A DNA stretch of 64,000 nt from Legionella lansingensis (GTDB lineage: Bacteria > Pseudomonadota > Gammaproteobacteria > Legionellales > Legionellaceae), in assembly GCF_900187355.1 (NCBI RefSeq), contig NZ_LT906451.1:2353001-2417000 (forward strand), in the 5' to 3' direction. Positions 4,161 through 45,855 of this stretch are shown in pieces. The translations under genes were made by a program, and so were the position numbers. Every line of letters starts with the position of its first letter. Position 1 is the first letter of the stretch. The notes under the pieces were generated by a model. It ran no database searches, had not been told where the DNA came from, and saw only the letters and a list, made by a program, of their open reading frames with translations.

Positions 4161-5747
4161 TTAAAAACCGATTGCTTGTCCATCTTTTCTTGGATCTGAT
4201 GCCGCCAAATAGCCTTCATCAAGACAATAAATTGCCTGACCTCCTCCATAGATCACAGTAGGGCTTGGTACAATGAAATGGCCCCTACGCCGCAACTCGT
4301 TAATAACCTCAGGTTTAATGCCACTCTCGATGCTAATTTTGTTTTCCTGAGAAATGTACCACCGGGGGGCATCTAAAATAGCTTGTGGATTTTGTAAATA
4401 ATCACATAATCTAACTATCATTTGTACATGTCCTTGTGCTTGCATGTGCCCACCCATCATACCAAAACTCATAAGTGGCTTTTCGTCTTTAAAAATAAAT
4501 CCAGGAATGATTGTGTGAAAAGGATATTTATTTCCCGAGACCTCATTGGGATGTCCTGGTTCAAGGGTAAAACATGCACCGCGATTTTGCATAAGAATAC
4601 CTGTTCCTGGAATAACGATACCTGAACCGAATATTAAATAGTGTGATTGAATTAATGAAACCATCATTCCATTATCATCACTTGTTGTTAAATAAACAGT
4701 ACCTTGTTCATGTGGAATGCCATACCCGGGTTGTTGTGCACGTGTTTTATTAATTAATTGTGCACGCTTTTTTAAATACGCAGAATCTAATAATTCCTGG
4801 GGGTCAATTTGCATAAAACTTGGATCAGCAATATAGTGTTTCGCATCGCTAAAAGCTATTTTCATAGCTTCAATTTGCAAATGCAGGCTGTCGGCTGAAT
4901 CAACTGGATAATTATCTAAATCAAAATGTTGCAAAATCCCAAGAGTAATAAGTACAGTTAATCCCTGGCCATTAGGAGGCAGTTCATATAAATGATATCC
5001 ACGATATTTTATCTTTAAAGGAGTGACTTTATGGGATTGATGCTGTTGCAAATCTTCCGCTGTTAGTAATGCATTTTCTTGCCTGGCGTAGTGAGCTATT
5101 TTTTCAGCTACTTCACCTCGATAAAATGCTTGACCTTTAGATTCTGCAATTTTCTTTAATGTGTGAGCCAGATCTAGGACACGGAATAATTCACCTGCAT
5201 AAGGTGCACGATTATTAGGTAGAAATACTCGGGCAAATTCCTGGTTATTTTTGAAGGGATCTGAACTTCGTTGCCAGTGTGTGGCTACAACAGGCGATAC
5301 TAAAAATCCATTTTCAGCATATTGTACCGCCTGTTCGAATAATTGCTCAAACGGTAAACACCCAAATTCTCTAGATAATGCAACCCAACCAGAAATAGCG
5401 CCTGGAACAGTAATGGTATCCCAGCCAGCCTGCGGCATTTTTTTATATTTTGCGAAATGAAGGCGTGACCAGGCTTGCGGTGATTTTCCTGACGCATTAA
5501 TACCATGTAATTGCTTGCCATCCCAAATCATGGCAAACAAATCACTTCCCAAGCCGTTCATGGTGGGTTCTACAACCGTTAAAGTGATTGCTGTTGCAAT
5601 TGCAGCATCCACTGCATTGCCTCCTTGTTGCAATATCCTTAAACCTGCTTGTGCTGCTAAAGGCTGAGAGGTTGCAACACAGTTTTTTGCATATATAGGC
5701 AAACGATGAGAATAATAATTCGAGCTTGAGGCGATAAATTTAGCCAT
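4161..5747 (-). CDS. Gamma-glutamyltransferase family protein
   Basis: This 528-residue Ntn-hydrolase precursor belongs to the Ggt/YwrD family. The large-subunit half shows LQQGGNAVDAAIAT and the GLGSDLFAM loop. The autocleavage site with the nucleophilic Thr is visible at EQGTVYLTTSDDNG, and the glycine-rich FGMMGG loop follows. The family hydrolyses or transfers gamma-glutamyl groups, for instance from glutathione. I see no signal peptide, which favours the cytosolic YwrD-like branch over periplasmic Ggt. It stands alone, convergent to the DUF2909 gene. The substrate is not predictable from sequence. Confidence 0.9.
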   Translation of the reverse strand: MAKFIASSSNYYSHRLPIYAKNCVATSQPLAAQAGLRILQQGGNAVDAAIATAITLTVVEPTMNGLGSDLFAMIWDGKQLHGINASGKSPQAWSRLHFAKYKKMPQAGWDTITVPGAISGWVALSREFGCLPFEQLFEQAVQYAENGFLVSPVVATHWQRSSDPFKNNQEFARVFLPNNRAPYAGELFRVLDLAHTLKKIAESKGQAFYRGEVAEKIAHYARQENALLTAEDLQQHQSHKVTPLKIKYRGYHLYELPPNGQGLTVLITLGILQHFDLDNYPVDSADSLHLQIEAMKIAFSDAKHYIADPSFMQIDPQELLDSAYLKKRAQLINKTRAQQPGYGIPHEQGTVYLTTSDDNGMMVSLIQSHYLIFGSGIVIPGTGILMQNRGACFTLEPGHPNEVSGNKYPFHTIIPGFIFKDEKPLMSFGMMGGHMQAQGHVQMIVRLCDYLQNPQAILDAPRWYISQENKISIESGIKPEVINELRRRGHFIVPSPTVIYGGGQAIYCLDEGYLAASDPRKDGQAIGF

Positions 5748-5995: not shown

Positions 5996-6025
5996 TTGAC
6001 AGTATTAATTTGCAGTCTCTACACT
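5996..6025 (+). promoter_or_regulatory. Sigma-70-type promoter of the bufferin operon
   Basis: A TTGACA -35 box at 5996-6001 is followed after 18 bases by TACACT at 6020-6025. This lies 78 bases before the precursor start and is the best promoter-like sequence in the 350 bp gap between the divergent transferase gene and the operon. The rest of the gap (5750-5990) is AT-rich and shows no gene. This is a sequence match only. Confidence 0.5.
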
Positions 6026-6103
6026 ATTTAGGCTGAAGAAGGCCCATTATGTTTTTGTTAATGGTTCAGTGAAGATTTTTATTTACTTAAGGAAGGAATC
6101 GTT

Positions 6104-6388
6104 ATGAATAAAATTAAATTAACCGGTGCAGCTTTGGCTGTAGGCGCTGCTGCAATGTTCTCCATAGCTCCAGTATATGCTTCTTCAAATTCTGATGCTG
6201 GTCAAATTCAATGCAAAGGCATCAATGCTTGTAAAGGTCAAAGCGTTTGCAAAACTGCTACTAGCTCTTGCAAAGGTCAGAATGCTTGCAAAGGCCAAGG
6301 TATTACTTTCACGAAGTCCAAAGAAGAGTGTCAAAACGCTGGTGGTACCGTTGTAGATAACGGTACCAGTGGTAGCAGCAGTAACTAA
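6104..6388 (+). CDS. bufA: Bufferin-type Cys-rich RiPP precursor (BufA2-like)
   Basis: This 94-residue precursor has a clear signal peptide ending around VYASS (residues 24-28), so the product is exported to the periplasm. The core has six cysteines at 37, 43, 49, 56, 62 and 76. Four are in CKG units and the first five are spaced six or seven residues apart. Precursors of this type are substrates of MNIO (DUF692) enzymes that convert cysteines to thiooxazole-type groups, and such products bind copper. A good AAGGAAGG ribosome site precedes the ATG at 6104. The tail is Gly/Ser-rich. The family call rests on the core pattern plus the two downstream genes; the modification itself is inferred. 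Confidence 0.88.
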   Translation: MNKIKLTGAALAVGAAAMFSIAPVYASSNSDAGQIQCKGINACKGQSVCKTATSSCKGQNACKGQGITFTKSKEECQNAGGTVVDNGTSGSSSN

Positions 6389-6414
6389 TCATTTCGCAAA
6401 AATGACCAACTGAT

Positions 6415-6451
6415 CTAAGTCAGATAAGCTTTAGCTTCTGACTTAGATTTT
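6415..6451 (+). terminator. Hairpin between bufA and bufB (partial terminator)
   Basis: A perfect 10-bp stem, CTAAGTCAGA (6415-6424) with TCTGACTTAG (6437-6446), is followed by ATTTTTG. It lies between the precursor and its modifying enzyme. A hairpin here would give much more precursor than enzyme transcript by partial termination or by protecting the 3' end of the bufA message. Confidence 0.7.
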
Positions 6452-6483
6452 TGTTTATCTAATAAATAAGAACAAGCCTAATT

Positions 6484-7335
6484 ATGGTTTCCCTAAGAGA
6501 AAAGTTACCTTTCCTTGGTTTTGGTCTCGGGCTTCGCCCCGAACATTATGAAGAAATTTTGGAACAAAACCCCGCGGTAGATTGGTTTGAAATCATTACT
6601 GAGAATTATATAGTCCCAGGTGGTAAGCCACTGTATTATCTGGATAAGGTACGTCAAGATTACCCATTGGTCATGCATGGAGTTTCTCTGTCATTGGGGA
6701 GCACAGATCCGCTGGACTGGGATTATCTTAAGCAATTAAAAGATTTGGCAAAACGCATTGAGCCTCATTGGATTTCTGATCATTTATGCTGGACTGGAGT
6801 TAACGGATTAAACTTGCACGATTTATTGCCTCTGCCTTATACCACTGAGGCCATTGATCACATCGTTGCCAGAATTAAAACCATTCAAGATTATTTGGGG
6901 CAACAAATCTTAATTGAAAATGTTTCCAGTTATCTCAGTTACAAAGAATCAGAAATGAATGAATGGGAATTCCTTTCCGAGATAGCCAATCGTGCGGATT
7001 GCTTCTTACTGTTTGACGTGAACAATATTTACGTCAGTTCGGTGAATCACGAGTTTAATGCTCTGGATTATCTGCGCGGAGTTCCAAGCCACAGAATAGC
7101 TCAAATTCATTTAGCAGGGCATTCTAACTACGGGGATTATATTATCGACACACATGATGCTCCAGTTACCCAAGCCGTCTGGGATTTATATGCCGAGACC
7201 ATAAGACAATTTGGAGCAATCTCCACAATGATTGAACGAGACGATAAGATACCTCCCTTAAAAGAATTAGTCCTCGAGTTAAACCACGCACGACAAATTT
7301 CAGATAACATCTTAGCTAATGAGTTCGCACTATGA
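6484..7335 (+). CDS. bufB: MNIO-class (DUF692) RiPP-modifying oxidase BufB
   Basis: This 283-residue TIM-barrel protein of the DUF692 / multinuclear non-heme iron oxidase family belongs to the MbnB and TglH class. The metal-binding strings are intact and in order: HGVSLSLGS, SDHLCW, HDLLPLPY, IENVSSY, DVNNIYVS, HLAGHS, DTHDAPV and a C-terminal ERDDKIPPL. The enzyme uses iron and oxygen to remodel cysteines of the exported precursor before export, working with the DUF2063 partner. It follows the precursor and hairpin, and its stop overlaps the bufC start (ATGA-type overlap at 7332-7335). Confidence 0.93.
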   Translation: MVSLREKLPFLGFGLGLRPEHYEEILEQNPAVDWFEIITENYIVPGGKPLYYLDKVRQDYPLVMHGVSLSLGSTDPLDWDYLKQLKDLAKRIEPHWISDHLCWTGVNGLNLHDLLPLPYTTEAIDHIVARIKTIQDYLGQQILIENVSSYLSYKESEMNEWEFLSEIANRADCFLLFDVNNIYVSSVNHEFNALDYLRGVPSHRIAQIHLAGHSNYGDYIIDTHDAPVTQAVWDLYAETIRQFGAISTMIERDDKIPPLKELVLELNHARQISDNILANEFAL

Positions 7336-8111
7336 CGGCTTTACTTAACCTGCAAAACATGTTTCAAGCCTATTTACTAAATGGTCAGCCCACCATCGAG
7401 AACCATGTTATTCATTCGGCAAAAGTTTCTGCCGCCAAGCGTCTGGATATTTATGGTGATGCTTACCGCAGTAGATTATTAGAGTGTTTAGCAAGTAATT
7501 ATCCCGTATTTAAACGTTATATCGGCCCCGAACTCTTTGAAGAAATCGGTAACACCTACATAGAGCAATATCCCTCCTCTTATCGTTCTATTCGCTGGTA
7601 TGGTGATAACTTCAGCCATTACTTAGAACAGAATCAGCCAAAAACTCACTCATACTTAGCAGAACTTGCACATTTTGAATGGTGCTTGAATCTGGCCTTT
7701 GATGCAGCAGATGCTGATGTATTAACTGTACAAGAAATGGCTGCTGTACCACCGGAGTCTTGGGCGGACATGACATTCACTCTTCATCCGTCTTTGCAAC
7801 AGCTAAACTTTTTCTGGAACGTGGCACCGATATGGCAAGCTGTTGCCAATGAGCAGGTACCAGACAAACCTGTGAGAAATGCCAAACAAAAGTCCTGGGG
7901 CGTGTGGCGCAGCAATTATACAAGTCGATTTTATAGCTTAGCTGACGATGAAGCATGGGCTCTCGCTGCTACCATGAGAGGAGCCAATTTTGGAGAAATA
8001 TGTACAGGTCTATGTGAGTGGCTAAACGAAGAAGAGGTCGGACTAAGAGCAGCATCCTTATTAAAAGGATGGATAGAGTTAGGCCTGATCACCAAGATAC
8101 GCTCAGAATGA
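7332..8111 (+). CDS. bufC: BufC, DUF2063 partner of the MNIO enzyme
   Basis: This 259-residue protein has an N-terminal DUF2063 domain (about 5-100) with the diagnostic RLDIYGDAYRSRLLECL and NYPVFKRYIG segments. A C-terminal helical region follows, like the MbnC-type recruitment partner. Such proteins bind the precursor and enzyme to form the active modification complex. Start and bufB stop overlap by four bases, so translation is coupled. The stop codon lies inside a dispersed repeat arm. No separate DoxX-type membrane gene is present in the operon. Confidence 0.9.
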   Translation: MTALLNLQNMFQAYLLNGQPTIENHVIHSAKVSAAKRLDIYGDAYRSRLLECLASNYPVFKRYIGPELFEEIGNTYIEQYPSSYRSIRWYGDNFSHYLEQNQPKTHSYLAELAHFEWCLNLAFDAADADVLTVQEMAAVPPESWADMTFTLHPSLQQLNFFWNVAPIWQAVANEQVPDKPVRNAKQKSWGVWRSNYTSRFYSLADDEAWALAATMRGANFGEICTGLCEWLNEEEVGLRAASLLKGWIELGLITKIRSE

Positions 8112-8160
8112 CAAACATACCTCGGAAAGGTGCTGGTCATTCTGAGCGCAGTGAAGAATC
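8100..8160. repeat. Inverted copy pair of a short dispersed repeat, overlapping bufC stop
   Basis: CGCTCAGAATGAC (8100-8112) and GTCATTCTGAGCG (8136-8148) are perfect 13-bp inverted copies. The right arm continues into CAGTGAAGAATC, a sequence of the kind found many times in Legionella-type genomes. Transcribed, it makes a stem with a 23-base loop that could end the buf operon message. The left arm includes the bufC stop codon. Confidence 0.6.
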
Positions 8161-45822: not shown

Positions 45823-45855
45823 AAACCCAGGTCAACTTTGACCTGGGTTTTTCAT
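45823..45855 (+). terminator. Strong Rho-independent terminator
   Basis: AAACCCAGGTCAA pairs with TTGACCTGGGTTT across a two-to-four-base loop (45823-45850) and runs into TTTCATC. Confidence 0.9.

What the first reader, a model, noticed from the sequence alone, without database searches (positions are those of the whole stretch)
5996..8111. Bufferin-type copper RiPP operon in a Legionella-like genome, with a hairpin after the precursor
A signal-bearing CKG-repeat precursor with six cysteines, a DUF692 MNIO enzyme with all metal motifs and a DUF2063 partner form a complete modification set. In a macrophage or amoeba pathogen, a periplasmic copper-buffering peptide would be a plausible shield against phagosomal copper. 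The 10-bp hairpin with U-run between bufA and bufB should set the precursor-to-enzyme ratio. No DoxX-type gene accompanies it.
Basis: partly seen in the sequence, partly recalled or inferred. Interest (0 to 1): 0.8.

Follow-up and report, generated by a model that had tools for sequence, protein, structure and literature searches.

The report
Legionella copper-buffering peptide operon (Buf2)
This is a three-gene operon of an already described kind that most likely makes a chemically modified, copper-binding periplasmic peptide; the less expected part is an RNA hairpin after the peptide gene that many relatives keep in the same place with a different sequence.

Summary
In a Legionella-type genome, 6104-6388 encodes a BufA2 (Buf2) bufferin precursor, 6484-7335 its MNIO maturase BufB and 7332-8111 the DUF2063/RRE-type partner BufC. 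BufA and BufB pass NCBI's curated cut-offs for these families; the BufC model matches partner structure 3DEE. The kind is already described, also in Legionella: Buf2 genes in L. pneumophila subsp. fraseri (PMC12452194) and the three-gene, DoxX-less H3 operon (PMC5413113). The genome also has a Buf1 operon with DoxX. What the sequence adds is regulatory. The hairpin is a perfect 12-bp stem (6413-6448). A perfect stem of at least 8 bp follows bufA in 61 of 84 loci, against 14 of 504 windows inside bufB and 11 of 83 other co-directional gaps; a chosen Legionella subset shows compensatory changes. Only 19 of the 61 have a T-rich tail, so it is probably an RNA-protecting or processing boundary, with termination in some species, perhaps this one. 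A phagosome-specific shield is not supported: 54 of the 84 loci are outside named Legionella/Tatlockia. New member of a known kind.

The parts
5996..6025 (+). promoter-like site TTGACA-N18-TACACT ahead of bufA
   Evidence: the pattern TTGACA-N(16-20)-TCTACACT occurs exactly once in each of 16 of 22 same-genus genomes, each time just 5' of a BufA2 hit; the reversed control pattern gives 3 matches in the same 22 genomes
6104..6388 (+). bufA: BufA2-family precursor, 94 aa, Sec-like signal (by eye), six Cys, five of them followed by Lys
   Evidence: NF050166 80 bits, cut-off 60; Cys positions
6413..6448 (+). 12-bp perfect hairpin between bufA and bufB, followed by TTTTGTTT
   Evidence: stems in the same place in many relatives
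6484..7335 (+). bufB: MNIO (DUF692) bufferin maturase, 283 aa
   Evidence: NF050167 391.5 bits, cut-off 310; PF05114; PDB 3BWW E 1.2e-50; Asp253/Asp254
7332..8111 (+). bufC: DUF2063 plus RRE-like partner protein (PME-type 1), 259 aa; start overlaps bufB end by 4 nt
   Evidence: PF09836 71.5 bits; model pLDDT 93.2 matches 3DEE and chain A of TglHI 8HCI/8HI7

Best explanation
A Buf2-type bufferin operon. Inferred from characterised relatives: BufB, with BufC holding the precursor through its RRE-like domain, converts Cys residues in the Cys-Lys motifs of BufA into 5-thiooxazoles (-4 Da each) in the cytoplasm; the peptide is exported by Sec and binds copper in the periplasm, buffering excess metal. 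Shown here: gene identities, the Cys-Lys-type active-site Asp, the two-domain fold predicted for BufC, a promoter-like site that in 16 of 22 same-genus genomes occurs once and only at a bufA2 gene, and a hairpin between bufA and bufB that many relatives have in the same place. Inferred: the hairpin marks the 3' end of a stable bufA mRNA segment (protection or processing, plus partial termination where a U-run follows, as here), so that much more substrate than enzyme is made. The ribosome-binding site of bufB looks weaker by eye than that of bufA and would push the same way.
For: Curated family hits. PDB relatives of BufB and BufC. Asp at the position reported for Cys-Lys MNIOs in 88 of 92 aligned enzymes (exceptions L071 Glu, L112 Ala, L009 Gly, own Buf1 enzyme Lys). 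Conserved surroundings: SURF1 upstream in 5 of 5 named same-genus loci. Perfect Watson-Crick stem of 8 bp or more within 75 nt of the bufA stop in 61 of 84 loci, against 14 of 504 windows inside bufB, 3 of 52 windows after bufC, 2.1% of shuffles and 11 of 83 other co-directional gaps. In 15 Legionella sequences chosen for a CCAGG-type stem, 4 of 11 pairs change on both sides, against at most 1 when the partner is slid. Promoter-like site: 16 matches in 22 genomes, all 5' of BufA2 hits.
Against: No chemistry, copper or RNA data for this organism. 23 of 84 loci fail the strict stem test (3 of 16 in the own genus, where the fold is a bulged stem). Only 19 of 61 strict hairpins have 5 or more T in the next 8 bases. 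The looser stem measure (9 or more pairs with G-U and one mismatch) gives 79 of 84, but 40 of 84 inside bufB too. The covariation is clear against slides but modest against column shuffles: 4 of 500 reach the score, 7 the pairs changed on both sides, 18 the percentage paired, 161 the number of pair types; one of the four changed pairs, at the stem's foot, is unpaired in 9 of 15. The window's own stem has another sequence and is not in that subset. The like-for-like comparison with Buf1 is missing: in the genus, 1 of 15 Buf1 genes has such a stem, but only that one (the own genome's) was seen followed by an MNIO gene. BufC is below the cut-off of the HvfC model (57 bits, cut-off 142). The Sec signal was judged by eye.
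Confidence: 0.8

Rival explanations
1. The hairpin is simply a partial intrinsic terminator (attenuator) that sets how much RNA polymerase reads on into bufB-bufC.
For: In the window the stem is followed by TTTTGTTT; 5 of 8 strict stems in other Legionella (L. wadsworthii, moravica and others) have 5 or more T in 8; no promoter-like site was found in the gap on the + strand.
Against: 42 of 61 strict stems lack a T-rich tail, yet stem and position persist. The consensus terminator scan does not list this one, its loop being longer than that scan allows.
Confidence: 0.3
2. The hairpin is not selected; it is an incidental palindrome or a decaying repeat between the genes.
For: Many GC-rich relatives have CCGGGCG/CGCCCGG-like arms that look like generic palindromes; other co-directional gaps show such stems in 11 of 83 cases; 23 of 84 loci lack a strict stem.
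Against: Sequence differs between clades while position (median start 13 nt after the stop) and pairing persist; compensatory changes in the Legionella subset; frequency far above the controls.
Confidence: 0.1
3. The peptide buffers another metal or mainly handles oxidative stress, copper being secondary.
For: The L. pneumophila GIG (Buf1-type) promoter responds to gold as well as copper (PMC5413113, passages); MerC-bufferin fusions are reported (PMC12452194 section 14).
Against: Bufferins are reported to enhance growth under copper stress (PMC12452194, start of abstract); the related captophorins generally bind Cu (PMC13097082, passages).
Confidence: 0.15

Closest known systems
Buf2 / BufA2 bufferin operons (Buf_6/12Cys; NF050166, NF050167; PMC12452194)
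   Same: Six-Cys precursor with signal, MNIO, DUF2063 partner; Buf2 genes already reported in L. pneumophila subsp. fraseri (passages).
   Different: No difference in parts found. The terms hairpin, stem-loop, terminator, attenuat, inverted repeat and promoter occur 0 times in that main text, so the hairpin and promoter-like site seem undescribed there.
L. pneumophila homologous operon H3, lpg2253-2255 (PMC5413113, passages)
   Same: Three genes in the same order, no homologue of the DoxX gene.
   Different: Sequence correspondence to this locus was not tested here; the promoter studied in that paper is that of the GIG operon (Buf1 type).
Buf1 / GIG operon (DUF2282)
   Same: MNIO plus DUF2063 partner; this genome has one as well.
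   Different: Precursor family differs; DoxX is present there; the corresponding enzyme residue in this genome's copy is Lys instead of Asp. 14 of 15 same-genus Buf1 genes have no perfect stem of 8 bp in the next 75 nt, but those 14 were not seen followed by an MNIO gene.
Oxazolin / fontiphorin (EGKCG, Lys-Cys captophorins; PMC13097082, passages)
   Same: MNIO plus PME1 chemistry, -4 Da 5-thiooxazole.
   Different: Precursor here has Cys-Lys, not EGKCG repeats; BufB scores 281 bits against a cut-off of 360 in the HvfB model.

Membership tests
Buf2 bufferin (BufA2 operon) | precursor matches the curated BufA2 model | tested here: met
   NF050166 80 bits, cut-off 60
Buf2 bufferin (BufA2 operon) | six conserved Cys | tested here: met
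   Cys 37, 43, 49, 56, 62, 76
Buf2 bufferin (BufA2 operon) | Sec signal peptide | tested here: inconclusive
   Lys-containing start, hydrophobic stretch and V-Y-A before S-S seen by eye; no predictor was run
Buf2 bufferin (BufA2 operon) | MNIO maturase of the BufB family | tested here: met
   NF050167 391.5 bits, cut-off 310
Buf2 bufferin (BufA2 operon) | PME-type 1 partner: DUF2063 plus RRE domain | tested here: met
   PF09836 71.5 bits, cut-off 27.2; AlphaFold model best matches 3DEE (E 1.1e-05), then chain A of TglHI, and only weakly (E 0.2 and above) lasso-peptide RRE proteins. It is below the cut-off of the HvfC model NF050145, 57 of 142 bits
Buf2 bufferin (BufA2 operon) | Cys-Lys-type active-site Asp next to the catalytic Asp | tested here: met
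   ERDDK motif, D253 in 92 of 92 and D254 in 88 of 92 aligned sequences; rule from PMC13097082 (passages)
Buf2 bufferin (BufA2 operon) | 5-thiooxazole modification and copper binding | not testable with these tools
   needs mass spectrometry and metal binding assays
Buf1 / GIG operon | DUF2282 precursor | tested here: not met
   no DUF2282 (PF10048) match for BufA at E up to 1
Buf1 / GIG operon | DoxX gene in the operon | tested here: not met
   next genes downstream, on the other strand, have BON, MerR_2 and DnaJ domains; published GIG and H2 operons include DoxX
Oxazolin / HvfA operon | EGKCG repeats and HvfB-family enzyme | tested here: not met
   no EGKCG in BufA; NF003818 281 bits below cut-off 360
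Intrinsic terminator (the hairpin) | stem followed by a U-run, conserved among relatives | tested here: inconclusive
   met in the window, but only 19 of 61 related strict stems have a T-rich tail

The most novel reading that the evidence does not exclude
Buf2 operons carry a selected RNA boundary element: a hairpin directly after the precursor gene, kept by structure and position rather than sequence, which separates a long-lived precursor mRNA from the maturase message and so fixes an excess of metallophore over enzyme. In the genus of this genome it is paired with a promoter site that, in the 16 of 22 genomes where it was found, occurs only at a bufA2 gene, giving a self-contained dosage module.
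Probability: 0.55. Interest if true: 0.45.

Novelty: new member of a known kind. Interest (0 to 1): 0.35.

Why it matters
The operon itself adds one more species to a recently recognised copper-handling peptide family. The comparative result is the useful part: it suggests that these operons separate precursor dose from enzyme dose with an RNA element, which is directly testable by 3'-end mapping in harmless species that carry the same operon, and it should be kept in mind when such clusters are expressed heterologously.

Tried and rejected
Rejected: Buf1/DUF2282 and EGKCG/oxazolin membership. Considered and left out: a conserved 5'-UTR dyad; it is visible in several species but not consistent when measured. 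A known RNA family: only one sub-threshold match, elsewhere (21 bits, gathering score 80). Sequence search of BufC alone against the PDB found nothing at E 0.1; the profile gave a weak 3DEE hit (E 0.0064) and the model gave a clear one. DoxX near relatives: none among the 25 of 26 Pfam families displayed for 34 downstream ORFs from 21 Legionella and related loci, so one family was not seen; tblastn with the own DoxX alone has limited reach. Promoter regex on chosen 135-nt upstream regions: 30 of 39 loci, 29 of the 30 with N18, but the regex allowed only N17-19 and no background was measured; the whole-genome count is the better evidence. Gap lengths depend on my choice of bufB start codon, and several came out too short (for example L008, L003, L049), so the counts use a fixed 75 nt after the bufA stop. 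Literature on hairpins in these operons: hairpin, stem-loop, terminator, attenuat and inverted repeat occur 0 times in the main texts of PMC12538549, PMC13097082, PMC5413113 and PMC12452194; searches listed nothing relevant by title and start of abstract. The library lacks most subscription journals, and the original bufferin papers were not seen.

Rows dropped before the hairpin counts: 96 bufB loci started (80, which kept the best 80 of 576 relatives, and 16), 5 duplicates removed, 7 without a located precursor (L042, L048, L050, L051, L052, L072, L106), leaving 84. For Buf1, 20 loci were fetched and 15 analysed; in L132, L136, L143, L144 and L150 my motif found no precursor. The after-bufC control covers 52 of 84 loci and none of the own genus, where the fetched stretches were too short.

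Full report
What is there. The window lies in a 2.99-Mb single-contig genome. The closest bufB relatives returned are Legionella tunisiensis, L. feeleii, L. maceachernii and others; named Legionella among the 80 loci range from 63 to 75% identity. No tool named the species itself. bufA (6104-6388), bufB (6484-7335) and bufC (7332-8111) are on one strand; bufC starts 4 nt before bufB ends. BufA and BufB exceed the curated cut-offs of the NCBI BufA2 and BufB models, and BufC carries the DUF2063 domain above Pfam's cut-off, though it is below the cut-off of the HvfC model.

Enzyme and partner. BufB matches the solved DUF692 protein 3BWW (E 1.2e-50) and, more distantly, 8HCI/8HI7 (TglH) and MbnB. 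Across 92 aligned enzymes, residues including H65, H100, E145, N146, D178, H209, D222, H224, E251 and D253 are at least 98% conserved; which of them bind iron is recalled knowledge, not tested. PMC13097082 (passages) reports that enzymes for Cys-Lys precursors have Asp where FonB has Phe250, next to the catalytic Asp. Here the motif is ERDDK, with D253 in 92 of 92 and D254 in 88 of 92 sequences; the exceptions are L071, L112, L009 and the Buf1 enzyme of the same genome, which has Lys. The BufC model (pLDDT 93.2) best matches 3DEE (E 1.1e-05), then chain A of the TglHI complex, which is the partner chain because the DUF692 chain is D; matches to RRE proteins of lasso-peptide synthesis are weak (E 0.2 and above).

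Is it known? Yes. PMC12452194 (passages and section 14) describes Buf2 operons across bacteria and reports five Buf1, two Buf2 and seven MNIO genes in L. pneumophila subsp. fraseri. PMC5413113 (passages) describes the three-gene H3 operon of L. pneumophila without a homologue of the DoxX gene, and copper- and gold-responsive promoter activity of the GIG operon. Absence of DoxX is therefore not unusual. This genome also has a Buf1 operon, bufA1-bufB-bufC-doxX, at about 2.958-2.961 Mb. BufA2-family hits occur in 19 of 22 same-genus genomes at E 0.001 or better and above the cut-off in 18 of 22; these include stand-alone genes.

Surroundings. In the five named same-genus contigs (L033, L034, L035, L038, L041), SURF1 and the small protein gene beside it lie upstream in 5 of 5; CtaA and CtaB are also seen in 3 of 5; BON, CbpM and CbpA homologues lie downstream in the other 2. 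The fetched stretches end near these genes, so an unseen neighbour is not an absence. The names CtaB, CbpM and CbpA are recalled from the domains (UbiA, MerR_2, DnaJ). This looks like a vertically inherited locus (inference). tblastn found no relative of the window's gamma-glutamyltranspeptidase in those five contigs.

The hairpin. The stem is 12 bp and perfect (6413-6424 with 6437-6448), -17.7 kcal/mol, followed by TTTTGTTT; the 64 kb hold only one other perfect stem that long with a loop of 3-16, and 5 shuffles held none. The relatives examined are those nearest to this BufB (best 80 of 576, plus 16 same-genus loci). Among 84 bufA-bufB junctions, 61 have a perfect stem of 8 bp or more within 75 nt of the bufA stop (own genus 13 of 16, other Legionella 8 of 8, Legionella and Tatlockia with repeat-type precursors 6 of 6, others 34 of 54). 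Controls: 14 of 504 windows within bufB, 3 of 52 windows after bufC, 2.1% of shuffles, and 11 of 83 other co-directional gaps of 25-150 nt between long ORFs. A looser measure gives 79 of 84 but also 40 of 84 inside bufB. Sequences differ between clades while the position does not (median start 13 nt after the stop). In 15 Legionella sequences that share a CCAGG-type stem, 92.6% of cells pair, 4 of 11 pairs have changes on both sides, and slid partners give at most 1. Against column shuffles the signal is weaker: 4 of 500 reach the covariation score, 7 the number of pairs changed on both sides, 18 the percentage paired, 161 the number of pair types; one of the four pairs is unpaired in 9 of 15. 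This subset was chosen for its shared stem, and the window's own stem has a different sequence. A T-rich tail (5 or more of 8) follows 19 of 61 strict stems. So the hairpin is most likely a functional RNA boundary, and termination is at most part of its job. Same-genus Buf1 genes have such a stem in 1 of 15 cases, this genome's own, where it falls within the first codons of bufB as called; it is also the only one of the 15 that my motif test saw followed by an MNIO gene, so this does not show that the hairpin is special to Buf2.

The promoter. TTGACA-N(16-20)-TCTACACT matches exactly once in each of 16 of 22 same-genus genomes, and all 16 places lie just upstream of a BufA2 hit (in G017 a stand-alone one); the reversed control pattern gives 3 matches in the 22 genomes. 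All 16 have the same spacing. In other Legionella the -10 element varies; 29 of the 30 sites found in 39 chosen upstream regions have N18, with a regex that allowed N17-19 and no background measured. The regulator, if any, is unknown.

Function. The most likely role is periplasmic copper buffering, by family knowledge. A special role inside phagosomes is a hypothesis without support here: 54 of 84 loci counted have names outside Legionella/Tatlockia, two of these being Legionellales, and many come from metagenome assemblies. That such organisms are free-living is inferred from names. Nothing excludes a contribution during life in amoebae.

Noticed in passing
L020, L022-L027 (same-genus genomes): BufA2-like precursors with variant Cys motifs and no MNIO gene seen by motif in the fetched 1.5 kb on either side; 6 of 7 have a TTGAC-N17/18 promoter-like site. 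They may be modified in trans by BufB.
   Followed up: partly
L076, L085, L098, L100, L102, L108: L. bozemanae, L. parisiensis, L. tucsonensis, L. anisa and two further Legionella/Tatlockia loci have precursors made of tandem CKG- or CKS-type units beside an MNIO gene, more Cys than the usual six.
   Followed up: no
L029, L030: Buf1 (DUF2282) precursors about 2 kb downstream of a BufA2 gene (places), followed by a YceI protein and, in L029, a cytochrome b561; no MNIO gene seen next to them by motif.
   Followed up: partly
window 8100-8148: 13-bp inverted repeat over the bufC stop with a GTCATTCTGAGCG arm; a 25-nt pattern built on it occurs three times in the genome.
   Followed up: partly
G000:C1 about 2960507-2960532, minus strand (L131): The own Buf1 operon has a 10-bp perfect hairpin 44 nt after the bufA1 stop, within the first codons of its MNIO gene as called.
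   Followed up: no
window 4161-5747: Gamma-glutamyltranspeptidase gene between SURF1 and bufA, without a tblastn match in the five named same-genus contigs.
   Followed up: no
window 45823-45850: The only other perfect 12-bp stem with a loop of 3-16 in the window.
   Followed up: no
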